NCBI GenBank assembly: GCA_009760855.2
Contig: WPIO01000079.1
Span: 1,563,501 to 1,627,500, forward strand
Reading direction: 5' to 3'
Origin: Cristatella mucedo
Taxonomy: Eukaryota > Bryozoa > Phylactolaemata > Cristatellidae
DNA length: 64,000 nt
Part shown: in pieces, positions 19,263 through 61,089 of the stretch
Numbering within the stretch: position 1 is the first letter of the stretch
Layout: every line of letters starts with the position of its first letter
Position numbers and translations under genes: made by a program
Notes under the pieces: generated by a model
Databases searched by the model: none
The model's input: only the letters and a program-made list of their open reading frames with translations
Told to the model about the DNA's origin: nothing

Positions 19263-19699
19263 AGCGCTCGCCGACAGTTTTATTTAAACGCTACCAATGA
19301 AAACAGGGATCTGTCTTCGTGAGCATTCAAACAGAAAATTACAGACCACAGCAAGAGGCAAACTCGGTTTGCAACGAATCCAATTTTAATCCTATTACCA
19401 ATGCTAGCAAGTGACCCTATGGTATGAGGATGAGACGCACCGAGGTAAACAGTGGTTAACAGCGAGTTCTAGTATGCCGACCCTTTTCAAAGACGTTAGG
19501 TAGGTAATGATTCTGAACTTCTACTCATTCATGGGTTTCCCTGATAACTTGTTGTTCAAATTTGTTTTCAGCAATTTATGCACGAGTCAGTGAACGTAAC
19601 TGAGCACAGGGCCTTTTGACCAGCAACTGAGAGCAGACGCAGTGCCAGGATTTTCGTCATTACTGTGGAGATAATGTAGAAGTCTAGTGCAAGTACAAT
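19263..19699. other. Unassigned DNA
   Basis: No motif was recognised. Confidence 0.3.
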
Positions 19700-19800
19700 T
19701 TAGAACCGGACACCTAGATTGTGTGCAGATGTAGCAGGATATATGCGGGAAGAGCAGATCGTGAGCGTTAGGTTTTCCAATTTCTGAATTTTGAAGCTCA
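19700..19800 (-). mobile_element. Family A LINE, internal fragment
   Basis: The complement matches the region after YADD that encodes the LERLTLTIGSASISP-like stretch of other copies (19,730-19,790). Both ends are lost. Confidence 0.65.
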
Positions 19801-19987: not shown

Positions 19988-19995
19988 GCCTAGAT
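19988..19995. repeat. Putative 8-bp target site duplication, left
   Basis: GCCTAGAT here and CACTAGAT at 20,184-20,191 match at six of eight bases and immediately bracket the hAT element. An 8-bp duplication is the hAT hallmark; the two mismatches fit an old insertion. Confidence 0.6.
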
Positions 19996-20183
19996 CAGTG
20001 GTTCTCGACCTTCCTAATGCTGCGACTTTTTAATACAGCTCCGTCAGGTTGTGGCGCCCCACAACCATAAAATTATTGTGTCCAAAAGGTGAAAATGCTT
20101 GTTTTCCGCTGGTCTTAGGTGACCACGATGAAAGGGTCGTTCGACCACCAATGGGATCGCCACCTACAGGTTGAGAGCTGCTG
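19996..20183 (+). mobile_element. SPIN-like non-autonomous hAT element
   Basis: The 188-bp element begins CAGTGGTTCTCGACC and ends GGTTGAGAGCTGCTG, imperfect terminal inverted repeats of the SPIN (Space Invaders) hAT family as I remember it. Internal blocks also match: CCTTCCTAATGC, ACAACCATAAAATTATT, TTTTCCGCTGGTCTTAGG and GAAAGGGTCGTTCGACC. Relative to the usual roughly 220-bp non-autonomous form it lacks a central segment after ATAAAATTATT. It encodes nothing and would depend on a hAT transposase supplied elsewhere. Multiple substitutions show that it is not a fresh insertion. Confidence 0.85.
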
Positions 20184-20191
20184 CACTAGAT
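20184..20191. repeat. Putative 8-bp target site duplication, right
   Basis: CACTAGAT follows the right terminal repeat and pairs with GCCTAGAT at 19,988-19,995 (six of eight identical). Confidence 0.6.
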
Positions 20192-21109: not shown

Positions 21110-22196
21110 CGTATACCAATGAGGTTTTAATAGTACACAAAATGCTACGGACATATTTGAACTTCGTAACGGGCAAAGAGACTAACACCTTCAAATTAGC
21201 TCCCGACTGCGTATCAAAACTCGGCTTTTTTCACATCGCAGTAACAGAGTGTTTAGTGCCACAAGCGACGCCAGCCATGGGGAATTCCAACAGTTCGCAA
21301 ACAGAAAAATAAAGTTGCAGAGCGAATTTAAAGAGAGATTTACGACGGCTGTTCTCTCCTGTGCCGTCGTTTGTGCATTTAAAGCGAGCCACTTCGTTGC
21401 TTTACGGTTCCGTTACGGTACGCCTTTGCGTCACCTTTGGCGCTGAAAAGGCAACAGTTATTGCTGGTCGCTACGTTTATTTGAATTTGACTGCATTTAC
21501 TCGATTCTCGCCCCGCATGCTCAGCCAGACCTCCAATTAGTCTTGGCCTTGTCCTACAGGCGTGCAGCGCGTTCGCAAACACGTGGGCCTATGGCGACAC
21601 GCGCATCTGTCGTTGGGTAAATTCCAAGCTTCCGCTTACCTGATGGCAAGTGTCGCGCAATGCCATCTCTTCGCGTCCGGAGAATTCTCCTCGCACTTCG
21701 TAGGCATGCGCCTTTGCTCCTCTCTCTCTCTCCTCGAGGCTTCCGTTTGGGTTAATTCGTAAACCAGTCGCAGTCTGACGGTAAAGTTCCCAGATGGGTG
21801 CGACTGTTGACGTCAGCGACATTCTTTCGTTGCCGTTCCCCAGCCGCCGTGCACAGGCTTACGACGACTCGTTTGCTGCCGACCGCAATTTTGCGGCCAG
21901 GGTAGGTTCGCGGCTGGCGTTCAATGCGCCGAGTACAGCGCCGCGAATTTCAATGTCAATGCGAGCACTTTTTTGCGTCGATCTGCATTTTACTTACTAG
22001 GGGCTGAGGTCACGATGTCACTTGAAGTTTTTAACTTTTTGAAGACGAAGCTGGTACCTTACCCTTGCTCGGATCATTTTTTTTCTAACGTGACTGGTCG
22101 TGACTTTTCCTGTGTGAGAAAACTGGACATATCTTAGCAGTTATATCTACTGACACGCGTGTTTACCAGGATGAGAGGTGACAAGGATATAGAAAT
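21110..22196. other. Unassigned DNA, moderately GC-rich on the right
   Basis: No transposon motif was seen. A + strand frame from an ATG at 21,794 (MGATVDVSDILSLPFPSRR..., 68 codons) passes a weak donor-like CAGGGTAGGT near 21,905, and a GACGTCAG CRE-like motif lies near 21,810. These are insufficient to call an exon. Confidence 0.3.
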
Positions 22197-22269
22197 ATTA
22201 TATATAAATATATTTATAGATAATAGATATATTCGCTGCTCTGTAAGCGGTATGCTAGCACGCTATTGC
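22197..22269. repeat. Left copy of a 73-bp direct duplication
   Basis: An AT-rich start (TATAAATATATTTAT) is followed by AAGCGGTATGCTAGCACGC and ATTGC. It matches 22,612-22,682 with only a few differences. A family A insertion lies between the two copies. Confidence 0.85.
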
Positions 22270-22343
22270 GGTATGCTAGCGCACTAATTATTTTGAATTT
22301 TGAAGCGACAAGTACTTGGATAGACATATAAATATATAATATA

Positions 22344-22611
22344 CACCTATTTATGACAGCATTTACAGGGTCCCTGTGATTCGTCCTTCATGTGCTTATG
22401 CGTGCTGACACTATGCACGCTGCCACTAACCAAATTTGCATGCTGACCCTGTGCATGTCACCCCTAACCATGTTATTCATGTTGTTTGTTTATCGAGCAT
22501 GATATTACACACCATTCAATTGCATTTTTCTTTACAGCAAATGTAAAGCGCCTAGAAAAAGATTGAGTTCACTGAGGGCGCTTTATCAAGTGCATGTTTA
22601 CTATTATTATT
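22344..22611 (+). mobile_element. Family A LINE, 3' copy between duplicated flanks
   Basis: It starts at CACCTATTTATGACAGCATT near the end of the coding sequence and retains the entire 3' untranslated region, a near-perfect hairpin (AAGCGCC at about 22,547, GGCGCTT at about 22,578) and an ATT tail. It is among the better preserved tails in the window. Confidence 0.93.
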
Positions 22612-22682
22612 ATTATATAAATATATTTATTGATAATAGCTATATTCGCAGCTCTGCAAGCGGTATGCTAGCACGCTATTGC
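22612..22682. repeat. Right copy of a 73-bp direct duplication
   Basis: It matches 22,197-22,269 and begins directly at the end of the LINE ATT tail. Its length is far above a normal LINE target site duplication. Confidence 0.85.
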
Positions 22683-23601
22683 TACTGCTACATTTCTACT
22701 TCCACTGTATCGTTTTGAATTTCCCTGATCAGCTTTTCCTTGGCCGCAGCGAGAGAGCCGAGCGTGTTTTATATTCACGCACGCTTTGCATATGTACGTG
22801 CGCTTTGCAGTGGACACTATAGGCCAGTGATCTTACTATCCGTTGGTTATCGGTGTTTTCATGTTTGCTTTAGCGACACTCTACATCGCAATAGGAAGCA
22901 TACTGATGGCCTAATCGTTGTATTTGTATTATGCTCTCGCTCGATCCGCACGCGGCGGCGGCGCGTAAGAGCAATGGCCTTGGCAATCGGTTCTCTCGCA
23001 GCGGCAGTCGGCAAGTGGCTCCGTCGGTTCTATGCATGCAACCCTACCCATGCAACCTACTCGATTCTTTAAAATAATTATAATAATTATTCTAATAATT
23101 ATTATTTCTCGCCGGGTCAGATAACTGGGCGAAACTAAAGCACTCGGAGATAAAGCCTGCGTAGCTTTCTCGCACAGGTGACCGGAGAGCCTTCCAACAA
23201 CCAAGTGGCTCCGTCCCTGCAAACCCAAGCAGCAGTGAGGTAGATGAGAGCGAGAAAAAACAGGCTCGCTGCGACCGCCGCTAGAGTTCTCGCCGGCAGT
23301 GGAAAACTTTCGAGCATGGAAGGCCTTCCGAGCGGCGCGCACGCCGCCGCCTTCTCCTCTTCCTCTGCATCTTCTTTGTGCCTCGCCGTTAAATTTCTTT
23401 GCGAAATCTCCTCTTCGTGCAATGGCGTCGCCGTCCGCCGCCGCCATTGCACTGCTGGTGGGCGGAGCGCTCGCCGGGGCTGCTTATTCGCCGCTATGGC
23501 CCGCTCATCCTTGTGATGTTACGCGTTGCGCGAGCCACCTGTGCAGACGTCAGAGGGCGGCGCGCTTGCTCTCAGGACGCTGGCACGAGCCGCCGCCGGC
23601 A

Positions 23602-23635
23602 TATAAGCAGATGCGACCGGCGGGTGCGGACAGTA
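23602..23635 (+). promoter_or_regulatory. Candidate core promoter (TATA + initiator)
   Basis: TATAAG at 23,602 lies 30 bp upstream of the A (23,632) of ACAGTAG, an initiator-like sequence. This is the canonical spacing. The pair lies within the CpG island, upstream of the candidate exon at 24,347. The transcription start is inferred only from motif spacing. Confidence 0.4.
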
Positions 23636-23688
23636 GCGGGCAGCGGGCACGCAAAGAAAGGTGACGTCCGCCCTCGGTCCTGTGGTAG
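23632..23688 (+). other. Possible non-coding first exon
   Basis: From the inferred start to a donor-like TGGTAG/GTATGA (GT at 23,689). An alternative donor AAAG/GTGACG lies at 23,661. It would splice to the acceptor at 24,210 and thereby skip several upstream ATGs. Entirely inferred from signals. Confidence 0.2.
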
Positions 23689-24210
23689 GTATGAGCGCCA
23701 GCACGCGCCCGCAAGCGGCTTCTCGAGCAGCCGCTGGACGAAGTTCTTCCGAACGCAGGCGTTCCAGCGACCGAGGCTCTCCGACCGCCAGCGAAAGCGG
23801 CGATCGCCTAGCGCCCTTTTGCTTGTTCGCTTCGATAGCGCCGCCGCCGCCACCCCTACGGCGAGGCAGTGGCACCAGGAAGCGCGCTCAGCCAGACCGC
23901 GACGCGCCAGTCCATTCGCCTCGCGAACGCCAAGCAGGTGCACGCCGCTTGACCTGATGCATCACTGGCACAACTGACGTCATTTCGCGTTCCGACGCCC
24001 GCCTCTTTCTCTCTCTCTCCCCGCCCCCTGCCGATGAGAACGAGCCACTATCCGATCCAAAGACAATTACCTTTGATCTTTCCCTTTTTTAAGGTCGCTG
24101 GCACGCCAAACCTGAGCGCCTAGCGTACCGCGGCAAGCGTCGAGAACTGTCAGGAAGTTTTTCAGTGCAGATTCAATAAGCATTCGTTGGTCGTTGCCTG
24201 TCCATTTCAG

Positions 24211-24212
24211 CG

Positions 24213-24249
<37 letters not shown>

Positions 24250-24556
24250 GCAAGCGAGCGAGGCGAGAACCTCACGGTGCGACACAAACTAAGTTCGGCT
24301 CGCTGTCGCTGCAACTCTCGCGCTCGAAAGACGAGAGGGCTCAGCCATGCTCCTGCTCGCCGTGGCGTTGATGGTGCAACTACTTCCGCCGCCGTCGTCA
24401 TCAGCCGAGCTCTTCCGACCGGAGCAAGTCGTCAACGCAGGAGGCGGCGGGCCCACTTTGACCTACCGCAACGTGCACTCGTTCACTATCGACTGCCGCC
24501 GCCACCATGCGAGCGAGAGGGACTACAGGGCGTGCGCGAGGAACTCTCTCATCCAG
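24211..24556 (+). CDS. Candidate exon with signal peptide; secreted protein, unknown
   Basis: The acceptor CCTGTCCATTTCAG ends at 24,210 and the donor CATCCAG/GTAAGCC follows 24,556. The coding part starts at the ATG at 24,347 (G at -3) and gives 70 codons, phase 0. The N-terminus MLLLAVALMVQLLPPPSSSA is a typical signal peptide, with cleavage likely after SSSA. The mature part starts ELFRPEQVVNAGGGG and has two cysteines (IDCRR and RACAR, 13 residues apart). I do not recognise the family. The cysteine spacing near the N-terminus loosely recalls arthropod takeout/JHBP-like proteins, a weak guess. The 5' part includes a GA microsatellite in the leader. Confidence 0.5.
24216..24248 (+). repeat. 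(GA)n microsatellite
   Basis: About 15 GA units, just downstream of the acceptor-like site and inside the presumed 5' leader. Confidence 0.95.
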
Positions 24557-27500
24557 GTAAGCCAACGGGTGACGCTCGCCGCCGCCGGCCCCTCACGCAA
24601 TGCGACCTGAGAATTTCACTGCTGCAGCGGCCGCCGGATTGCGGATTGGTGACGGTGCGGAGCGAGCGCCGTCGGAGAGAAGGAGGGTGCGAAGTAAAAT
24701 GGCGCCTTCCCTCTGCATCCACCCTAGAGACGATTGTGAGCACGCTCGCAAATCTCATCGCTGGTTGCCGGAAATACCTGCGGCTCTGCCCACTGAGCAG
24801 TCGATCGAGCTCTGCAGTGAATACACGCTAAATTATTACTAATTTATTCACATGCGCACGCAGCCGGATAAGTGGTAAGTCTAATGGATGTATTCTCGAA
24901 TGCCAGTGAGATTTTGCGGTTTGGATTCGCTGCAGTGACGCCGGGCCGCACTGCTGGCTGCGGCGATTAAATCGCACGAACCTCGCCACATACGAGCCAG
25001 CTTAAAGGTGCACGAGCATTCGTTGATGAAGTTCAGGGTCGTGAGAGCCTTCGAGGGACGCCTAAAATGCTACAGCCGTCATTCTCAGACAGGCACAGGC
25101 TGCGTGGCTTTGTTGGGTTACAGAGGCAGATACATACGAGCGAGTGCCTAGCGGCAAGCGTCTGCGATCTGAAGAGAGGGGTTTGCTCGGACGTCACCTT
25201 GCGGCTAGGCACAGTCGAGCGTCGGCTGCCAATTCCCAACGTACATAAGTCTGACGTAAATCGCACGAGTTTCGGACGTATCGTAACCGTTCTCAGCCTA
25301 AATAAATTGGAGAATTCTCTTTGGTTTCATGTGCCAAGCACACGCCCACGGATGTCATGCGATGCGTCCAGCGAAAGCCCTATTGGACAACGAATGCCGG
25401 TGAACTATGAAAGATTGCGAATGTCTAGTAGCTGGTAAATGGTCCTCTCATTACGGCTAAGATTCCAGATTGTACAGAATTAATTACGTTGCCTTAGGCT
25501 GATTGTGCGTAGGAACGGGTCGCAGAAGAGGTGAGGAGACTAGCTGTTCCACGGAGAGGTAGCTGCTCTTACCGACGCCTAGTGTAATGTGTTCGTGTAA
25601 AAGTGAATAGAGACTATTGTAGAAGTTATTTCCATGCATGCGAATACGCTGAAGCATGGGTCCAATTGATGTGTCAGTGAATATCAAGTAGGCACGCGCC
25701 AACTCAAGTCATGGCTTGCTTTTAAAAGCGAGCCGTCTTATAAATAATCCTTTGCAATGTAAAGAAGCCGATCGAAACCCAGGGAGAAGAAAAGTGTCGC
25801 GATGTAAACTCACCGTTTTTCTTTCACAAATCGTGTTTTGAATGGCCATGCCCTACTACACGTCTACCTTTTGGCTTCCAGTTCCCTCAAGAATTACAGT
25901 ACGTGCGTCCGTAGGACTGCACAGGTATCGCAGCGATCGTCACGTCAATATTTCAAATGGTCGGGAGACCGGAAGTATAGTACTAACCTCAAAAAGAGCT
26001 CGAAAGAAGGAATTGGCAGATCATCACGTAATTAACGTCATTACGAGGAAAAAACTTCATTTTTTAAAGTCCGCTCCTGCTACGGTTGAGGCCATTGTCT
26101 ATTGCTTCACCTGAGATTGTTCCCGAACTGACTTCCGGTCGCCCTTCGCTTGAGACACTAATGAACCGCGCTTCTGCACGATCGTGCCTCGTTTGGTTTG
26201 ATAATAATAGATTATTAATAGGAGAGTGGTAGCGCGCCCTAAGAAAATGAAAGCTTTTTTCCGTACGCTTTACATAAGCTGAACACGGAAAGCCGACGGA
26301 CAAAAGCCAGTGGACGCATAGGACCCGAGATTCCGTTTGCCGGTTTACGGTTGCAGTCACGAGTTGGTGGTGAGCGGCTCCACCCAGGGTGCGAGCTATC
26401 GTGGCAGGTTGGCTTGGCGCTTGCGTTTGAGGCATGCACCGAACACCGGCGATGGCTGCGGCACGTGGGCGAGGTGAACACTGCTTGCTGACGTCACGCT
26501 CGATGTGTACTTTTCGCCTCATTATAGAGCTACTGCGCTGGCAATGCTTTGATGAGATTTAATAGTATTTGATGTACTGGCAGATAATATTTACTTTTTT
26601 TAATGTACAGCAGCATTTCGCACTCCCTCAACTAAAATTGAACAGTAAATTTTGCGTTCAATAATGAAATAGCGTGGACCAGGTTAGCTGTTACAGTATC
26701 TTGAACGCTTCTTTTTTGTAAATCAATTTCTCTGCAATATTTCCCTGCTACATACTAGAAACCGGGTAAAAGCCGTGCAGTCTGCAGTTAACCAGTTAGC
26801 ATTTCGTAGATTTTCTGTTTTGTCTAGGTGAATGATTGCGACTTATTATTTGAGAATAAAAAAACTACATTTTCCGCAGCAGCATCCTTGCATCAATTGC
26901 AATACAAATTGTATCGGCTAAGGCACGTGTAACGTGAGTTCAAAAATAAAGAATCAATAAAATTTCCTGCTTTACAGATGGGCATTGTAATTCCTCAGCC
27001 TTCATACGATCTTCCAGCGAGATAGGCTCGTTGGTTCTTAAACTTCGACTACTGGTATCACGTGCCCGACGGCAGCAGCAGGAGAGCTGTCCTAGCATCG
27101 CTGACAATTACAAAGCGCCCCAACAGTGACCGCTTTGACGTCGCATCTTGTTACTCTCTATGAATTACATACTGCACTGCACTTAATTTCGTGTCGAGAT
27201 TTTAAGTTTACACTATATTTCATGACGAAATATTTTTGTTGACGTGTATATATTTTCATTGAATTAAAGGTAAAATTAGCCAGTGCACGGGCTCTATTTT
27301 CTAATCACGGCTCGTGGATCCCGTGTAAATTGAATAATTTAAGTGCATATACCAGGAGTTAATAATAACGCAGCCATTCAGCTAGAATAAGATGTCGGCG
27401 TTAAGTTTTTTTTTGCGTCATCGATCGGCTGTCTCTCTTATGACTTGGTGCCAAGCACTGGAAGTGACGTGAAGCCACAACTGAACAATGGCCACTTGTT

Positions 27501-34914: not shown

Positions 34915-37290
34915 ACATTGGGATTATTGCTGGCCCGTAGTCTATCGTCTGCCCAGGCACCAAGATGTCGCTTGTTTTTTATTTCTCTGATTTCATTTCG
35001 AATCTGAGTTCAAGAGATCGATCTTTTCTCGTTACGGGTAATTTTAAAGTTCATGATATAACTTATCTGACATCTGCAGCACATAATTTCGTGTACTGAC
35101 TGACTCATTTTATCTCGTGCCTCATGTGCATAGCCCTACTCATGTCAAGGGTCACACACTTGACCAAAGATCTCATACAACTATCCATCGACAGGCATAC
35201 GAGGAATACTGTAGGTCGTACCAATCCATCCACTCAAATGCCAAGTCTAGCTTCAAAGAGAACATTGTTGAATCATAGATGCACAATCCAAAATTGCTGA
35301 TCTCGACGATCGACCATCTCAACCACTCACAAGTAAGTTCCTTACCTAATCCCTGCGACAATCTAGCTGATCGCTTCTCTAACTTCTCGTATTGTCCAGA
35401 AGAAAGGTCATGAGCTCCATCCCAAATAATCGCCGCTTTCCCCAAGACCGATGTCCCTCAACTCCTTGCAGCACCTCAATTTCTACATCCAATGATGTCA
35501 CTAGTGACCTCGTCTTGAATGTTACATCTCGACAAAAAAGACAAGTCATTTCGATGCTATTCCCACGATCCTTCGATTAGTTATTCTGCTGCTGCTATGC
35601 ACACCTAGCATCAATAGCATGTCATTAGCCTCAGGTCATGTCACAGTACCTTTCAAAAGAGCTGCTGTCAGGCAACTGCTCAAGAAAGCTGCGCCAGACG
35701 AAGAGAATTTGAGCAGTAACCGCACAGTTTCTCTTCAGCTATTCCGGTCAAGGACGCCAGAGCGAGTCGTGGCAGACCAGCTGAACTCGTATATTGAAAT
35801 TTCAAACCTTGCTTGTTAGTCACAATCTGGCTTTAGAGCTAATCACTCCACAGAGTCAGCATTTTTTCGGGTGTGCTATGACCTACTTAGGAATGAGGAA
35901 ATGGGTTGAGTACTCTGCGTGCTTTGCTCGATCTTTCGGCAGCTTTTGATACTGCCTATCACCAAGTTCTTCTTCAGTGCCCCTCATCTTGCCTGGCCAT
36001 CACTGGCACTTCTCTGCATTGGTTCATGTTCTATCTCAGTGGGAGACTCTAGTGTATTAATGTGAATGGACAAAGATCATCCGAGGTACCTCTGAAATAT
36101 AGGGTACCTCAGGGCTCCGTGCATGGTCGGGTTCTTTTCACGATTAATACTTCCCCTCTTGCCGATGTGATTGCCAAGCACAATCTAGGCTTTCACTTCT
36201 ATGCGGATGAAACTCAGTTATACCTTTGCTTTAATAAATCACAGCCTTTGAGCACCTCCAATTCTCTTAACTCCCATGCTGCGTGTATTGATAACATCCG
36301 CACATGGGTGGCAGCAAATTATCTTAAAGTGAATGATACAAATAACTTACTAGTTATGGGCATACCAAGTGTGATTCAGACATTGAAAAGGCTAACGCTC
36401 TAAATTGGCTCTGCCACCTCATCTCATGCGGAATCCGCACGAAATCTGGGTTCCATGTTGATAAGTGATAATTTTTTAGGCCACCACATCAACTCCACAA
36501 TCAAGTCTGCCTACTTCCCACTAAATAACATTGCTAAAATTGGGTCGTATTTAGACAGGGATACCGAATATAAGTTGTTCCCTGCATTTGTGACATCCCT
36601 TCTTGAATTCTGAAACTCATTGCTGGCTGGCCAACCGGCATGTGCAATCAGGCGCTTATAGCTAGTGTAAAGCTCTGCAGCTACGCTTGTTTGTCGCGAG
36701 CATTTCAGTTTCCGCATCCCACCACATCTTGCCGACCTGTACTAGCTACCAGTCAAGCAACGGATTGATTTCAAGGTTTTGGCACTCACTTTTAGGTTAA
36801 TCCATTCTTCGGCTCCAATCTACCTATCACATCCACTCGCTCACCTGGCCAAGCATTGTAAACCCCTCTTTTCTGAAACTACCTGTTTACTTCTACTTCG
36901 CACAAACCTCAAATCCTTTGAAGATCTCGCATTTAGTTCGTATGCTCCCAAAGCTTGGAACTCACTCCCGAATTGCGTCATGACATCGTCTGACTTGACC
37001 ACATTTTAAAAGAAATTAAAACCCACATATTTATGAGAGTATGTGGTAGGTTCCCGCGATTCGCTCTTAAAGTGCTTATTTTTGCCGATACTGCACGCTA
37101 TCACTAATCACACTTGCATGCTGACCCAGTGCATGTTACACCTAACCATGTTATCCATATTTTTTATCTAGCATTATACCACTCGCTATTTGATCGTGTT
37201 TCCATTGCAGCAAATTTAAAGCGCCTAGAAAGATTGAGTTCCCTGAGGGTGCTTTAACAATTGTATTACAATTTTTATATTTAATAATAT
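34915..37290 (+). mobile_element. Family A LINE, 2.4-kb copy
   Basis: It starts within the endonuclease (the TAGTCTATCGTCTGCCCAGG region, equivalent to about 51,680 of the full-length copy). About 390 bp between the endonuclease end and the linker are missing (junction near 35,183). It retains RT motif A as FDTAYHQVLLQ (about 35,945-35,980), VPQGSVHGRVLF (about 36,100-36,140) and YADE (36,200-36,211), a change of the second catalytic aspartate to glutamate. The C-terminal region, 3' untranslated region, hairpin and tail follow. Confidence 0.92.
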
Positions 37291-39800: not shown

Positions 39801-40928
39801 TCGGTAATCTGAGTCCTAAACTGTAAAAACCTATACTAGAACTTTTATATTATGATACATAAATGGATTCTGTCTGTACTGGTATGGCATGACACCTACA
39901 CAGGAGGCTGCAGCTATTAGTTTTCTAGTTTAAGTATTAATGGTGATTTTTTCTCATTACATAAGTTTAGTCATAGGGTTATTAGTCAAGCATCGACACT
40001 CCTAGTAAAGAAATAGCTCTCTTCAAACAACGAGAACAGGAAAAACGTGCATTAGTTCTGGATCTTTTACCACAAGCTCTTGGGGCAGAGCACATGCTAC
40101 GACAAATGTGCAAGTCTTCTGGGCAGTTGAGGGATCAGCCTTAATCTAGACTAATCGTAAAATCTGTGGATGACAAGCAGGTCTTAAGCAATAGCTGTCC
40201 GGCGATGGGCACTTACGGCTGTGGGATCTGCAAGTAAACCGATTGATCACGGAGCAATATTCTTCGCCATTTACAATTTCTTTTGAACCGGCACGCGCCA
40301 CTTCGCTCTTTTCATTAGCTTCCAGGACACCGTGTCACCTGGCAGCTGTTGTATCCGTTGGTGGTTTAATTTACGATAACCATAACACACGCACTAGTAT
40401 GCCGCATTCAGCTGCTGAAGCTTAGTAGAAGCCTGAATTCACCAGAAGCTTTTTGTTCGATGCTTCCGGTAGACATCTGTGCAGGTACGTGTACATGTGC
40501 CGTGTACACATCTGCTCAGGCAGGTTTTCCGATTCGTCTGGCACGCCAATCGTTATACTGAGTAAAGGTGCCGGTTTTCCTGATCCAAGCAATCTCAGCT
40601 GGCATATGAATGTCGAGATTTCCCGATACTTGTATTGGCACTGTTACACTGTTGTAAGCTACTAGCCATTCTTCCTTGGTCGAACGAAAGGCTACCTCAA
40701 ATATCATCTGCCTACGCAAACATACAGGCATGTCCAGGCTCATTAGAAGTCCTTTAATAAGTAATGCTATTACCTTCTCGCCAAGGAAAACATCCTACTG
40801 CTAGAATGACTAGTCCTTTTTCTATTGGCTAAACGAGGTAAACATTCATTACAGGGTTTCGGGCAGATCTAAGTTACGCGAAATCTTGTGCATCTACTAG
40901 CTACCAGAGGTCTCGGCGTTTACTACAT
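39801..40928. other. Unassigned DNA with a coding-like minus-strand frame
   Basis: The minus strand at 40,516-40,743 is open for 75 codons behind an acceptor-like TATGTTTGCGTAG (about 40,716) and reads protein-like (for example PAEIAWIRKTGTFTQYNDW). No family is recognised, and the + strand is also open here. Confidence 0.25.
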
Positions 40929-44324: not shown

Positions 44325-45465
44325 AATGCAATGTAACGTAATGTATCTCCGTCTGTAACTTCGCAAAGCCACACAGACTCTGTGGGTGCTATCCAAGAGT
44401 GTTTTGTACAGCTCACTCACAGCCTACGCGACTTTCGGTACACATTTGATAGCCAGCAGGCTTCGTCTCACGCAACAAAAAGAAAGTGGGAAGCATAGCA
44501 GATTCAGGAGAGCAGTTGAGGTAGTGAGTAGCGTGGAAGTAGCAGCTCAGGACCACTGGAAAGGATGAGCCATAGTCGGCAGCAGGAGATTAGTTTTTAT
44601 TGCCTAAGAATTGTAGAAGCAAGTTCCACAGCCTAGGACCTTCAGAGCTAAAGCTTTTGTCGCCAAAGTTCTTTAAGTGAGAGAATGGAATAGATAATTT
44701 ATTGTCCATACAGGACCTAATGGCACGAAGAAGCTGAAACTGGTGCAGCAGTTAAGCTAGGTATGTAGGTTCCGAGCCGTGGCGGGCCTTTTGGGTCAGC
44801 ATAAGAACTTTGCTCTGTTTCCGTTGATCAACCGGGCCGCCATCCTAGCTCTTTCAGCAAAAGAGACACGTGGGCGAACCTCTGGGACTTGAAAACTAGC
44901 CTTGCAGCCATATTCATAGCCATTTGCAGTGGCCTAGTTGCTTTTATTGGTAGCCCCGCTAAAAGGGAATTACAATAATCAAGCCGTGGCAGAACTAAGG
45001 AGCTAGCTAAATTGCTTGCAAGCAGCTCTTTATCTTAGATGGGGATCGTACGTGATGGCTAGCTGTAGAATCAGTCTTCTGAATGAAGCTTTTAAAATTT
45101 AGGCACCTGTTAAAAACCACACATAAATTTCGGACACGCAGTGATGGTCGCACAACAGCATCCCCTATTGGAAGAGCAAAGCCTTCTAATTCAGCCGCAC
45201 GCTTAGGGTGTCCTATGAGCAGCAGTTCGGTTTTATTGTCATTCAGTTTCAAGACGTTTTCCGACATCCAGGATCGAACGTCGGCAAGGCAAGTATTCAG
45301 TTTCTCAGCTGCTTCAGCAGATTCCGACGGTTTGAATGAGAAATGCAGCTGAGTATCCTCAGCATAAAAGTGATATCTTATTACATAGGCCTTAATCACT
45401 TTCCCCAGAGGTTGCTTATAAATGCACAATATCAAGTGACCAAGGACGAATCCTGGTGAACATAT
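44325..45465 (-). mobile_element. Family B LINE, copy 1 of a head-to-tail trio
   Basis: The complement of ATGTATCTCCGTCTGTAACT begins its 3' end at about 44,340. Upstream lie the C-terminal region and a 142-codon frame (45,007-45,435) holding the YADD block as FHYAEDTQ-like YAED (45,351-45,370) and the LNDNKTELLLIGHPKRA stretch after it. It stops in the GFVLGH (PQGxVLGP) region. Truncated 5', without RT motif A or endonuclease. Confidence 0.88.
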
Positions 45466-50806: not shown

Positions 50807-53800
50807 TTTCTCGCCTCCTGACATAGAGCGCTCTAACATGCTTTCGTGTTCGTTGCAGAATTCTTCCGAAAACCGAAGTTCTTGCGAACATCGTATACGG
50901 AAACGATACAGCTAAGACCTGTTTAAAGTTATTGTGATTTATTTTTACCGTAGCGTGTAAGAAATTACGTGCTTATGGAAATCTAAACGCTTATCGCTTC
51001 GGGCTGCCGGGTCTCCCACGCCGGCGGCTGCCTTAGCTAAGCCGGCGGCTGGTAACCTGCTTGTTAGTTATGATCGTCAGCAGCTGCTATCGCTTCGTCA
51101 TCGCATATCAAATGCATTCCTAGATATTAATGTTGTTGCTAAGATTAATTAACTATGCATTAACAAAAGAAAAGCACCCAGTGGCAGCCAAGGTGGCCGG
51201 AACCGCCAGCTCAGACGCTGCTCGTTGGGCTGGGACTGCGAGCTGAGTAACCGCTCTTTTGGTTTTCCTAGCATTGTCTCGAACCGCTCAGCACGCTCCC
51301 CCACATGCGTCACTGTAAATCTCTCTAACTTAGTGGTCATCAGGCCTGTTGTAACTCCACCGGCCGGACTTATCGCTTGCCTTTGGAATCCTCGCTCAAT
51401 GTGCAATAAACCTCTGGTAATAAGCGACCTCATTTCTAAAAATGGTATCGACCTGCTCGCCCTAACTGAAACTTGGCTAAAATTGACAAACTGCCAACAA
51501 TTAAAGACGCAATCCCGTTTGGTTTCTCGTTCTTTCACACCCCTAGATCAATCAAAACTGGAGGTGGAGTTGCTGTTATCGTGCACTCGAAATTCAACTT
51601 CAAGCCATTTGCAGTACCCTCGAAGCAGTCTTCTGAATCAATTGTCTTGGTCTCACCCGAAAACAAGCTATAGATAGTAGCATTAGTCTATCGCCCACCA
51701 AGTACCAAATCCTCCTTTATCTCAGATTTCTCCGATCTCATTTCGATTCTGTGTGCAAGGAATCGATCCTTCCTCGTTATGGGTGATGTCAACGTTCACT
51801 TTGGTAACTTATCTGACACTTTCAGCACCGAATTTCGTGCATTGACTGACTCATAGTCTCTTGTGGCTCATATGCATGGCCCTACCCACATCAAGGGTCA
51901 CACACTCGACCAGATTTTCTCATACAACTGCAATTTGTCATCACCAATTATTACCAAATCCTGCTTATCTGACCACATGCAGATCTCATTCAATCTACAG
52001 TGTATGCCCACATCCTCCTCTAAAATAACCTGTGAATCGCGAAACCTCAAGACCCTTGACATCGATGCTGTCCGTGCGAGAATATCAGCTTCGACTCTGC
52101 TGCTCAGTGCTCCCTCCGATCTGCCATCATTGGTAGATAGCTACAAGAAGACACTAGCTGACACGCTCGACGAGTTTGCCCCTCTGACAAAGCACACTGT
52201 GCGCCCCCGCCCAGACGGCCTATGGTTTACCGTAGACATTAAACTAGCCAGGTCTACTAAACGAAAGCTTGAAAAAGCATACAAAAGATCCGGACTAACT
52301 GTCCATCGACAGGCATATGAAGACTACTGTAAGTCTTACCGATCGATCCTAGCAAAGGCAAAGTCTAGCTTCTATACAAACATTGTTGAATCACAGATGC
52401 ACAATCCAAAAATGCTGATGTCGACAATAAACCATCTCCTCAACTGTTCCCAGATTAGCTCCTTACCTGATGATCCTTGTGATGATCTAGCCGATCGCTT
52501 CTCTCAATTCTTTGTGCAGAAGATAGACAAGATCAGGGAATCCATCCCTTCGATGACAACCTCCCCACTAGAATGCTTTTCGTCGGTTCCTGGCTGCACC
52601 TCAATGTCTGCATTTAAGCAGGTCACTAGTGATCTAGTCCTAAAGTTCGTATCTCAATCAAAGAAGACTACAAGTCCTCTGGACCCTATTCCCACTGTCC
52701 TGCTCCTACGTTGCATTGATCTGCTGCTGCCATGCATAACTAACATCATTAATATATCATTAGCCTCAGGTCATGTCCCAGCACCTTTCAAAAAAGCTGT
52801 AGTCAGGCCTCTCCTCGAGAAAGCAACACTGGACCAAGAGAACTTGAGAAACTACTCGTGAAAAACCGTGGTGGACCAGCTGAACTCGTATATCGACACT
52901 TCACACCTTGCTAGTAAGTTCCAGTCTGGCTTTAGAGCTAATCACTCCTCAGAGTCAGCATTGCTTCGGGTATACAACGACCTACTTAGGAATGCAGACA
53001 TGGGTAGAGTGTCTCTGCTTGTTTTGCTTGATCTTTCGGCAGCTTTTGACACAATCGATCACGAAGTTCTTCTAGAGCGCCTCTCATCTCGCCTGGGCAT
53101 CACTGGCACTGCTCTGCAGTGGTTCAGGTCCTATCTCAGTGGGAGACTCCGGAGTATTGACGTGAATGGACAAAGATCATCTGAAGTACCTCTGAAATAT
53201 GGAGTACCTCAGGGCTCCGTGCTAGGTCCGGTTCTGTTCACGGTTTATACTCTCCCTCTTGCTGGTGTGATTGCCAAGCACAATCTTGGCTTTCACTTCT
53301 ATGCGGATGACACTCAGTTGTACCTTTGCTTTGATCCCTCCTAGCCTTCGAGCACCTCAAATTCTGTAAACTCACTTGCTGCCTGCATTGATGACATCCG
53401 CACATGGATGGCAGCAAATTTTCTAAAACTAAACGATGACAAAACTAACTTACTAGTTATGGGCAAACCCGGTATGATTCAGAAATTGGAAAGGCTGAAG
53501 CTCAAAATTGGCTCTGCCAGCATATCTCCTGTCGAATCAGCTCGAAATCTAGGTGTCATATTCCAAAGCGACATCTCGTTAGACACCATATCAGCTCCAC
53601 GGTCAAATCTGCCTATTTTCAGCTTCATAATATTGCTAAATTTCGGGCTTGTTTAGATAAGGATACCACGTCTAAGTTGGTCCATGCATTCGTGACATCT
53701 CGTCTCGTCTTCTGCAACTCACTGCTTACTGGCCCGCCAGCATGTGCGATCAGGTGATTGCAGCTGGTGCAAACTTCTGCAGCTAGGCTTGTCTGTCGTG

Positions 53801-54401
53801 AGCATCGCAGTTGCCACATTACTCCACTTCTCGCCGACCTGCACTGGCTACCAGTCAAGCAACGGATTGACTTCAAGGTTTTTTCGCTCACTTTTAGGTC
53901 CCTTCATTCTATGGCTCTAGCCTATCTCTCCGACATACTCCCCCATAAGACCAAGCATCGTACCACCTGCTTTTCGGAATCCGACAGTCTAGAAATACCT
54001 CATACAAACCTCAAATCCTTTGGAGATCGTGCATTTAGTTCGTATGCTCCCAAAGCCTGGAACTCCCTCCCAACCTGCGTCAGAACATCCCCTGACCTGA
54101 CCACATTTAAAAGGAACTTAAAAACACACCTATTTAGGACAGCATTTAGTGGGTCCCTGTGATTCGCCCTTGATGTGCTTATGCCTGCTGACACTGTGCA
54201 TGCTGCCACTAACCACATTTGCATGCTGACCCTGTGCAAGTCACCCCTAACCATGTTATTCATTTTGTTTGTTTATCAAGCATGATTTTACTTACCATTT
54301 AATTGTATATCCCTTTGCAGCAAATGTAAAGCGCCTAGAAAGAGATTAAGTTCTCTGATGGCGCTTTATCAAGTACATTATTATTATTATTATTACTATT
54401 A
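50807..54401 (+). mobile_element. Full-length family A LINE (CR1/L2 type), about 3.6 kb
   Basis: The insertion boundaries are defined by the split older copy rather than by guesswork. The 5' leader occupies roughly 50,807-51,000. Coding sequence for the endonuclease begins before LIACLWNPRSMCNK (about 51,369) and ends around GHTLDQIFS (51,896). RT motif A (FDTIDHEVLLERL, about 53,045-53,085), VPQGSVLGPVLF (about 53,203-53,240) and YADD (53,300-53,311) are intact. AFSSYAPKAWNSLP (about 54,030-54,070) marks the C-terminus. The 3' untranslated region, hairpin (outer arms 54,329-54,335 and 54,360-54,366; inner arms 54,341-54,345 and 54,352-54,356) and ATT tail end it. No ORF1 was recognised. Confidence 0.92.
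51000..54162 (+). pseudogene. Endonuclease/reverse transcriptase frame of the full-length LINE
   Basis: The polyprotein would nick DNA and reverse-transcribe its own RNA at the target. The frame is broken by a frameshift near 51,475; by in-frame stops at about 51,673, 51,855, 52,861 and 53,344; by a short deletion around 52,855-52,865 (the conserved RPVSLLP-type block is missing); and by another frameshift near 53,585. Two large pieces stay open: 51,863-52,861 (332 codons, endonuclease end plus linker) and 52,868-53,344 (158 codons, catalytic RT core). Catalytic motifs are intact, but the gene cannot be translated whole. Confidence 0.9.
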
Positions 54402-59930: not shown

Positions 59931-60171
59931 GCAAGGTATCTCCGTTGGTGACCTCTTGATAGCCACGAGGACCAAGTGGGCGTAATGAAGGATCAAAGCC
60001 AGAGTGCACAACGAGTGGACCGAGGATTTCTTTTTGGTGGCCACTAGCTGAGGGCACTGCGCCTCAGGCGTTCAGCCAAAGCTAGGGAGCTCGTGAGCTA
60101 TTCCTCCGTAGACAGTTAACAAACTTAAAGCTTTGGAGCTTTCACAGGTCTACGAAACGAATTGTTCGGGC

Positions 60172-61089
60172 ATGCGATACTGCAGAATGCTTTCTTTGGC
60201 GATCTTAGTCGGTTTTTTAGCCTCCGCCCGAACGACTAGCCCCGATCAATCGCACACTTACACTTGTAAGGATCTCACTTTTCGGTCTAGGCGTCAACGG
60301 TTGCATATTGAAAAAGCATCACTAGCGGCCCTTACTTTGCACATCTATAGAAACCCGAGGTGCGTGTGCCTGGCACTTCCTGCATGTGACCACATCAGCT
60401 CCACAGTCAAATCTGCTTATTTTCAGCTTCATAACATTGCTGAAATTTGGGCTTGTTTAGATAAGGATACCACGTCCAAGTTGGCCCATGCATTCGTGAC
60501 ATCTCGTCTCGACTTCTGCAACTCACTGCTTACTGGTCTACCAGCATGTGCGATCAGGCGATTGCAGCTGGTGCAAATCTCTGCAGCTAGGCTTGTCTGT
60601 CGTGAGCGTCGCAGTTGCCACATTACTCCACTTCTCGCCGACCTGCACTGGCTACCAGTCAAGCAACGGATTGACTTCAAGGTTTTTTCGCTCACTTTTA
60701 GGTCTCTTCATTATATGGCTCCAGCCTATCTTTCAGATATACTACCCCATCAGGCCAAGCATCGTACCACTCGCTTTTCGGAATCCAACAGTCTAGAAAT
60801 ACCTCGCACAAACCTTAAATCCTTTGGAGACCGTGCATTTAGCTCGTATGCTCCCAAAGCCTGGAACTCCCTCCCGACCTGCGTCAGAACATCCCCTGAC
60901 CTGACCACATTTAAAAGAAACTTAAAAATACACCTATTTAGGACAGCATCTAGTGGGTCCCTGCGATTCGTCCTTGTTGTTCTTATGCGTGCTGATACTG
61001 TGCATGCTGCCACTAACCACATTTGCATGCTGACCATGTGCATGTCACCCCTAACCATATTATTCATTTTGTTTGTTTTTCAAGCATGA
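60172..61089 (+). CDS. Chimeric open frame: signal-peptide-like start fused to LINE C-terminus
   Basis: An ATG frame of 305 codons from 60,172 (second ATG at 60,187). Residues from 60,187 read MLSLAILVGFLASARTTSPD, a good signal peptide; then a cysteine-containing, non-LINE region extends to about 60,388. From there the frame is family A C-terminal sequence (TVKSAYFQLHNIAEI through APKAWNSLP) and runs into its 3' untranslated region. A donor-like CACTT/GTAAGG near 60,266 would instead splice out before the LINE, making only the N-terminal part a real first exon. Whether any product is made is unknown; the uninterrupted join may be chance. Confidence 0.35.
   Translation: MRYCRMLSLAILVGFLASARTTSPDQSHTYTCKDLTFRSRRQRLHIEKASLAALTLHIYRNPRCVCLALPACDHISSTVKSAYFQLHNIAEIWACLDKDTTSKLAHAFVTSRLDFCNSLLTGLPACAIRRLQLVQISAARLVCRERRSCHITPLLADLHWLPVKQRIDFKVFSLTFRSLHYMAPAYLSDILPHQAKHRTTRFSESNSLEIPRTNLKSFGDRAFSSYAPKAWNSLPTCVRTSPDLTTFKRNLKIHLFRTASSGSLRFVLVVLMRADTVHAATNHICMLTMCMSPLTILFILFVFQA
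60381..60387. repeat. Possible 7-bp target site duplication, left
   Basis: TGCATGT here and at 61,207-61,213, near both ends of the family A copy. Confidence 0.45.

What the first reader, a model, noticed from the sequence alone, without database searches (positions are those of the whole stretch)
19988..20191. SPIN-like hAT element with imperfect 8-bp duplication
Both ends and four internal blocks fit the SPIN non-autonomous hAT family as known from tetrapods, a triatomine bug, a pond snail and a planarian, where its patchy distribution was explained by horizontal transfer. The copy here lacks a central segment and has CTAGAT-containing flanks. If this genome is from a lineage without reported SPIN, the finding adds a recipient and may bear on host-parasite exchange.
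Basis: partly seen in the sequence, partly recalled or inferred. Interest (0 to 1): 0.75.

Follow-up and report, generated by a model that had tools for sequence, protein, structure and literature searches.

The report
Decayed copy of SPIN jumping gene
The 188-base stretch is an old, decayed copy of SPIN, a jumping gene known for having crossed between distant animals, and more than a thousand related pieces sit in this apparently invertebrate genome.

Summary
Window 19996-20183 (188 bp) is a non-autonomous hAT element flanked by GCCTAGAT and CACTAGAT (6 of 8 alike). Its genome (572 Mb) holds 1,161 places within 3 mismatches of the family's 29-base 3' end and 1,033 of the short-form junction; reversed controls 0. 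A 187-bp consensus of 41 copies has inverted repeats alike at 15 of 16; 31 of 42 copies have flanking 8-mers matching at 7 or 8 places, around CTAGA. Its middle, absent from the window copy, matched genome copies at up to 93% over 148 bases, and 5 of 8 fetched long copies align over all 311 recalled bases. So the 'missing centre' belongs to a successful short subfamily, not to this copy alone. No transposase with SPIN ends was found (50 of 138 hAT matches examined). The host is an unnamed animal, probably not a vertebrate (recall-based reading of 18S pieces); phylum unresolved. A new host record is possible but unproven. Known kind of element; moderate interest.

The parts
19988..19995 (+). 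left copy of the target-site duplication, GCCTAGAT
   Evidence: 6 of 8 match with the right copy, family preference nnCTAGAn
19996..20183 (+). 188-bp non-autonomous SPIN hAT element (short, internally deleted form); 25 substitutions in 187 compared places from the family consensus (K2P 0.148)
19996..20011 (+). 5' terminal inverted repeat (16 bp)
   Evidence: 12 of 16 places agree with the 3' end; 15 of 16 in the consensus
19996..20077 (+). 5' block shared with recalled SPIN (72 of 82)
20069..20097 (+). junction region of the short form (consensus AAAATTATTGTGTGCAAAATGTGGAAATG; 3 mismatches here)
   Evidence: 1,033 places within 3 mismatches in the genome
20100..20183 (+). 3' block shared with recalled SPIN (72 of 84)
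20168..20183 (-). 3' terminal inverted repeat (16 bp)
20184..20191 (+). right copy of the target-site duplication, CACTAGAT

Best explanation
The feature is a decayed non-autonomous copy (MITE) of the SPIN family of hAT cut-and-paste DNA transposons. It has no gene; it kept only the two ends that a SPIN-type hAT transposase would recognise. Shown here: paired ends, 8-bp duplications at nnCTAGAn in the family, insertion of family members into other repeats whose uninterrupted counterparts exist, more than a thousand places in the genome, and longer relatives (312-642 bp) with the same ends from which the 187-bp form differs by lack of the middle. Inferred: that a transposase supplied in trans moved it, that the short form arose by internal deletion and then amplified, that the family is now silent, and that it came into this lineage by horizontal transfer.
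For: Own-genome copies: 41 matches listed, 40 of 1,703 candidates scored. Consensus, inverted repeats, duplications. Counts 1,161, 1,033 and 56, reversed controls 0. Recalled SPIN ends: 80/81 and 85/85 with the consensus, 72/82 and 72/84 with the window copy. Recalled SPIN middle (182-base query, which overlaps the two end blocks by roughly 17 and 21 bases): 40 matches scored of 118 candidates, best E 9.9e-55, 93% over query 1-148. Five of 8 long copies (L091, L092, L095, L097, L098) align over recalled 1-311 at 83-87%; L093 over 50-311; L094 and L096 in two pieces around extra middle sequence. Matches across joined flanks for 9 copies, e.g. the L019 site against window 53045-53262 (81.7% over 219), inside a reverse-transcriptase frame.
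Against: No transposase gene with SPIN ends was found among 50 of 138 hAT-dimerisation matches. The window copy's own duplication is only 6 of 8, and 11 of 42 copies match at 6 or fewer. The window copy is about twice as diverged as the mean of the 41 copies (0.148 against 0.068), though those were picked as best BLAST hits and so lean to well-kept copies.
Confidence: 0.92

Rival explanations
1. It belongs to another Buster-group hAT family that shares look-alike ends with SPIN (for example Buster1), not to SPIN itself.
For: Buster1 has TGGGTCGCG subterminal repeats and MITEs (366-449 bp in the part of the table seen) in Mengenilla and Schmidtea (passages of PMC4298943); the 3' block here also holds GGTCGCGACC.
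Against: Buster1's inverted repeat is CAGGGCTTCTTAAAC, unlike CAGTGGTTCTCAACC. The agreement with recalled SPIN covers 166 end bases and a middle of about 145 bases.
Confidence: 0.05
2. It is moved by the young hAT family that is abundant in this genome (63 high-scoring, near-alike matches).
For: 16 of those 63 have open frames of 635-642 aa and one has 1,947; the 30 fetched are mostly 98-100% alike to L046 in their main piece.
Against: Its end reads about ...TCCGGTACAGCCCTA, unlike SPIN, and the SPIN consensus has no match in the 30 fetched loci, which hold 1.5 kb on either side of the domain. SPIN copies lie about 7% from their consensus, so their burst looks older.
Confidence: 0.02
3. The SPIN copies are contamination of the assembly by vertebrate DNA.
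For: SPIN is best known from tetrapods (recalled).
Against: Copies lie on contigs up to 24.8 Mb, with 8-bp duplications, inserted into this genome's own repeats; the 100 of 1,033 short-form places that are listed lie on many contigs.
Confidence: 0.01

Closest known systems
SPIN (SPACE INVADERS) hAT transposons and their SPIN_NA MITEs, including rodent URR1-type elements (names recalled; SPIN_NA names for Rhodnius seen)
   Same: Inverted repeats CAGTGGTTCTCAACC / GGTTGAGAACCGCTG, end blocks (165 of 166 bases with the recalled sequence), middle segment in longer copies, 8-bp duplications, dominated by gene-less copies.
   Different: Most places here carry the 187-bp form without the recalled middle: 1,033 within 3 mismatches of the short junction against 56 of a 29-base piece of the middle; a rough ratio, since the two stretches may decay differently. 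No autonomous copy found.
SPIN-like hAT of Biomphalaria glabrata, about 1,000 copies (PMC5440852, passage)
   Same: Invertebrate host, similar copy number, 'significant identity' to SPIN reported by its authors.
   Different: No sequence of it was available for comparison; relation of the hosts unknown.
Buster1 (Mengenilla, Schmidtea, Rhodnius, Heliconius; PMC4298943, passages)
   Same: hAT Buster group, MITEs, TGGGTCGCG subterminal motif like the GGTCGCGACC here, patchy hosts.
   Different: Inverted repeat CAGGGCTTCTTAAAC.

Membership tests
hAT superfamily, non-autonomous element | 8-bp target-site duplications | tested here: met
   31 of 42 copies match at 7 or 8 of 8 places, about 4.7% expected with re-paired flanks; window copy 6 of 8
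hAT superfamily, non-autonomous element | short terminal inverted repeats beginning CAG | tested here: met
   15 of 16 in consensus, 12 of 16 in the window copy
hAT superfamily, non-autonomous element | mobility: uninterrupted counterparts of insertion sites | tested here: met
   9 copies have matches across the joined flanks; none for the window copy
SPIN | SPIN end blocks | tested here: met
   80/81 and 85/85 of the consensus against a sequence recalled from memory; not against Dfam
SPIN | SPIN middle segment in longer copies | tested here: met
   recalled middle: 40 matches scored of 118 candidates; 5 of 8 fetched copies across all 311 recalled bases
SPIN | match to the published SPIN consensus in Dfam/Repbase | not testable with these tools
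   no such library; the three SPIN papers asked for are not held
SPIN | autonomous copy encoding SPIN transposase with the same ends | tested here: inconclusive
SPIN acquired by horizontal transfer | similarity far above that of host genes, patchy host range | tested here: inconclusive
   165 of 166 end bases like the recalled tetrapod sequence, but host unnamed and no host-gene distance computed
Buster1 | inverted repeat CAGGGCTTCTTAAAC | tested here: not met
   consensus begins CAGTGGTTCTCAACC; Buster1 repeat

The most novel reading that the evidence does not exclude
This genome is from an invertebrate lineage (a non-vertebrate, perhaps spiralian animal) with no report of SPIN; it received SPIN by horizontal transfer, and a 187-bp internal-deletion derivative then spread to more than a thousand copies while longer forms stayed rare.
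Probability: 0.45. Interest if true: 0.55.

Novelty: new member of a known kind. Interest (0 to 1): 0.42.

Why it matters
SPIN is a textbook case of horizontal transfer of a transposon across animal phyla. A further invertebrate genome with over a thousand SPIN places and a series of shortened forms would widen the known range and give a relative age (about 6-7% from consensus in the copies sampled) for SPIN activity outside vertebrates. Whether it is a new host depends on naming the genome.

Tried and rejected
Two exact-pattern scans of IMG/VR for SPIN blocks found nothing. Rfam at gathering thresholds found nothing in the window or in the 18S-like locus L099; ARAGORN found no tRNA in the window. 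The young hAT family was rejected as the autonomous partner. A WD-repeat-like frame at 40195-40422 gave only weak PDB matches (best E 0.0045) and no Pfam match. A paper search by assembly size did not name the host (listing only).

Host identity: by recall, the 18S pieces (L099, L100) are not vertebrate-like; both are partial or broken, so this is weak. Cuticle family PF00379: 0 matches, but the tool warns that its 14 control genomes also stayed silent. A COX1 pattern hit on a 21,008-base contig reads with TGA = Trp and has AAA at the Lys of SGKEE, which speaks against the flatworm/echinoderm mitochondrial code if that Lys is right; the spiralian impression is recall.

Full report
WHAT IS THERE. 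Window 19996-20183 is a 188-base sequence that begins CAGTGGTTCTCGACC and ends GGTTGAGAGCTGCTG, between GCCTAGAT (19988-19995) and CACTAGAT (20184-20191). The window lies at G000:C664:1563501-1627500 of a 572.0-Mb assembly in 688 contigs.

IT IS A FAMILY. The element plus flanks matched 41 listed places in its own genome, itself included; 40 of 1,703 first-look candidates were scored. The 8 loci brought in by that search plus 32 regions fetched cover these places and held 42 copies. One of the two copies in L038 has a different interior and was left out of the consensus and distances, so 41 copies were used there. The consensus is 187 bases, with inverted repeats alike at 15 of 16 places. Mean K2P distance of the 41 copies to consensus is 0.068, and 0.056 without the 11 CpG sites; the window copy is at 0.148 (25 substitutions in 187 places). 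The copies were best BLAST hits, so the mean leans low and no fair rank can be given to the window copy. Whole-genome counts within 3 mismatches: 1,161 for the 29-base 3' end, 1,033 for the short-form junction, 56 for a 29-base piece of the long-form middle; reversed controls 0 in each. The window copy itself has 3 mismatches to the junction pattern and 5 to the 3' end pattern, so the second count misses copies as decayed as this one. In the window it is the only copy at a significant score, and the consensus has no match at E 0.001 in the 220,876 bases of L041-L090, fetched for another reason.

TARGET SITES. Of 42 copies, 14 have 8-of-8 and 17 have 7-of-8 matching flanks; 5 have 6, 3 have 5, 1 has 4 and 2 have 3. 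Ends were placed by extending BLAST matches without gaps, so a few low values (such as L024) may be off by a base. Re-pairing left and right flanks at random gives 7 or 8 in 4.7% and 6 or more in 16.5%. The preferred site is nnCTAGAn with a central TA. So the 8-bp duplication is real for the family, while the window copy's 6 of 8 carries little weight alone. In a search with joined flanks, 42 full copies were located (the window copy twice, as window and as L001); those with too little flank were skipped and their number was not printed. Nine copies (L003, L004, L006, L010, L013, L016, L019, L029, L034) gave 95 match rows across the join; other rows were not counted. One example is the L019 site against window 53045-53262 at 81.7% over 219 bases, inside a frame with a reverse-transcriptase match (52862-53341, PF00078, E 4.7e-20). 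The window copy's left flank matches other repeats only at 19696-19789, not up to the insertion point, and its right flank matches nothing else fetched, so its own empty site could not be shown.

WHICH FAMILY. No Dfam or Repbase is at hand and the three SPIN papers asked for are not held. I therefore typed a tetrapod/rodent SPIN sequence from memory. Against the consensus it gives 80 of 81 bases at the 5' end and 85 of 85 at the 3' end; against the window copy 72 of 82 and 72 of 84. The stronger test is the middle, which the window copy does not have. A recalled 182-base query over the middle (overlapping the end blocks by roughly 17 and 21 bases) found 118 candidates; 40 were scored and all 40 are listed as matches; the best is 93% over query 1-148, E 9.9e-55. 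Of the 8 loci fetched, L091, L092, L095, L097 and L098 align over all 311 recalled bases at 83-87%, L093 over 50-311, and L094 and L096 in two pieces around additional interior. L094 (498 bp) and L096 (642 bp) share 404 bases of their 5' part at 86%. This nested series with constant ends is what internal deletion of a longer element produces; the 187-bp form is the one that spread. Flanks of the 8 long copies match at 6 or 7 of 8 in 5, and at 2, 3 and 4 in the other three, of which L093 lacks its 5' end. The rejected neighbour Buster1 has inverted repeat CAGGGCTTCTTAAAC (PMC4298943, passages).

THE TRANSPOSASE. The hAT dimerisation domain PF05699 gives 138 matches, 150 of 766 candidates scored. 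Sixty-three have E at or below 1.1e-16 and look like one young family; the 30 of them fetched were compared and end near ...TCCGGTACAGCCCTA. The SPIN consensus has no match in these 30 loci, which hold 1.5 kb either side of the domain, and only chance-level matches (best E 0.21) in 20 loci of the weaker ones, mostly about 3 kb either side. The other 88 matches were not examined. A SPIN transposase may be lost, broken or simply unexamined.

THE HOST. By recall, two 18S-like pieces are not vertebrate-like, but both look like broken copies. PF00379 cuticle proteins: 0 matches, with silent controls. A COX1 pattern hits a 21,008-base contig; 291 bases read in one frame with TGA as Trp, and AAA stands where I expect Lys, which speaks against rhabditophoran flatworms and echinoderms. 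I lean to a spiralian animal, by recall only, and cannot name a phylum.

WHAT IS KNOWN. Seen in passages: four hAT families of Rhodnius, SPIN among them, up to about 98.1% like those of opossum, squirrel monkey and bat (PMC11614815); 385 SPIN elements in painted turtle (PMC4054807); a hAT of about 1,000 copies with identity to SPIN in the snail Biomphalaria glabrata (PMC5440852). Lymnaea as a SPIN host is recalled (a 2026 paper only quotes Gilbert et al. 2010 on this snail as a trematode vector: PMC13155389, passage). I make no claim that SPIN in this host is absent from print, because the host is unknown.

HOW IT WORKS. Most likely a hAT transposase of SPIN type, made by a full-length element, bound the ends of such gene-less copies, cut them out and pasted them at nnCTAGAn sites with an 8-bp duplication. 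Deletion of the middle made a short passenger that spread to over a thousand copies, and the copies have since decayed. The structure, duplications and counts are shown; the trans-mobilisation, silence and horizontal origin are inferred.

VERDICT. Real, correctly placed, and with high confidence SPIN. A new member (possibly a new host record) of a well-known kind; it becomes more than that only if the genome proves to be from a lineage without SPIN.

Noticed in passing
G000, 63 places, e.g. L046, L052, L062; one on the window's contig at C664:800917-801153: A young hAT family with other ends (about ...TCCGGTACAGCCCTA): the 30 fetched copies are mostly 98-100% alike to L046, and 16 of the 63 have open frames of 635-642 aa; looks recently active.
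   Followed up: partly
window 51153-54162 (+), also pieces at 35508-37006 (+), 45010-45465 (-), 60112-61086 (+): Non-LTR retrotransposon copies (L2/CR1-like by recall) in broken frames; Pfam reverse-transcriptase matches only at 52862-53341 and, below cut-off, 45010-45465. SPIN copies elsewhere have inserted into relatives.
   Followed up: partly
G000: 10 and 15 places, e.g. C166:5067039 (L099), C55:168697 (L100): Scattered 18S rRNA-like fragments, 84-100% and 86-96% like two recalled conserved stretches. By eye and recall, L099 passes into other sequence after about 150 bases and L100 lacks most of the V4 region.
   Followed up: partly
window 22001-26000: GC-rich stretch (0.51-0.53) with CpG observed/expected 1.16-1.23 against 0.89 for the whole window; could be a promoter region.
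   Followed up: no
L038 353-525 (-) and 618-804 (+): Two SPIN copies of different subfamilies lie about 90 bases apart in opposite orientation.
   Followed up: no
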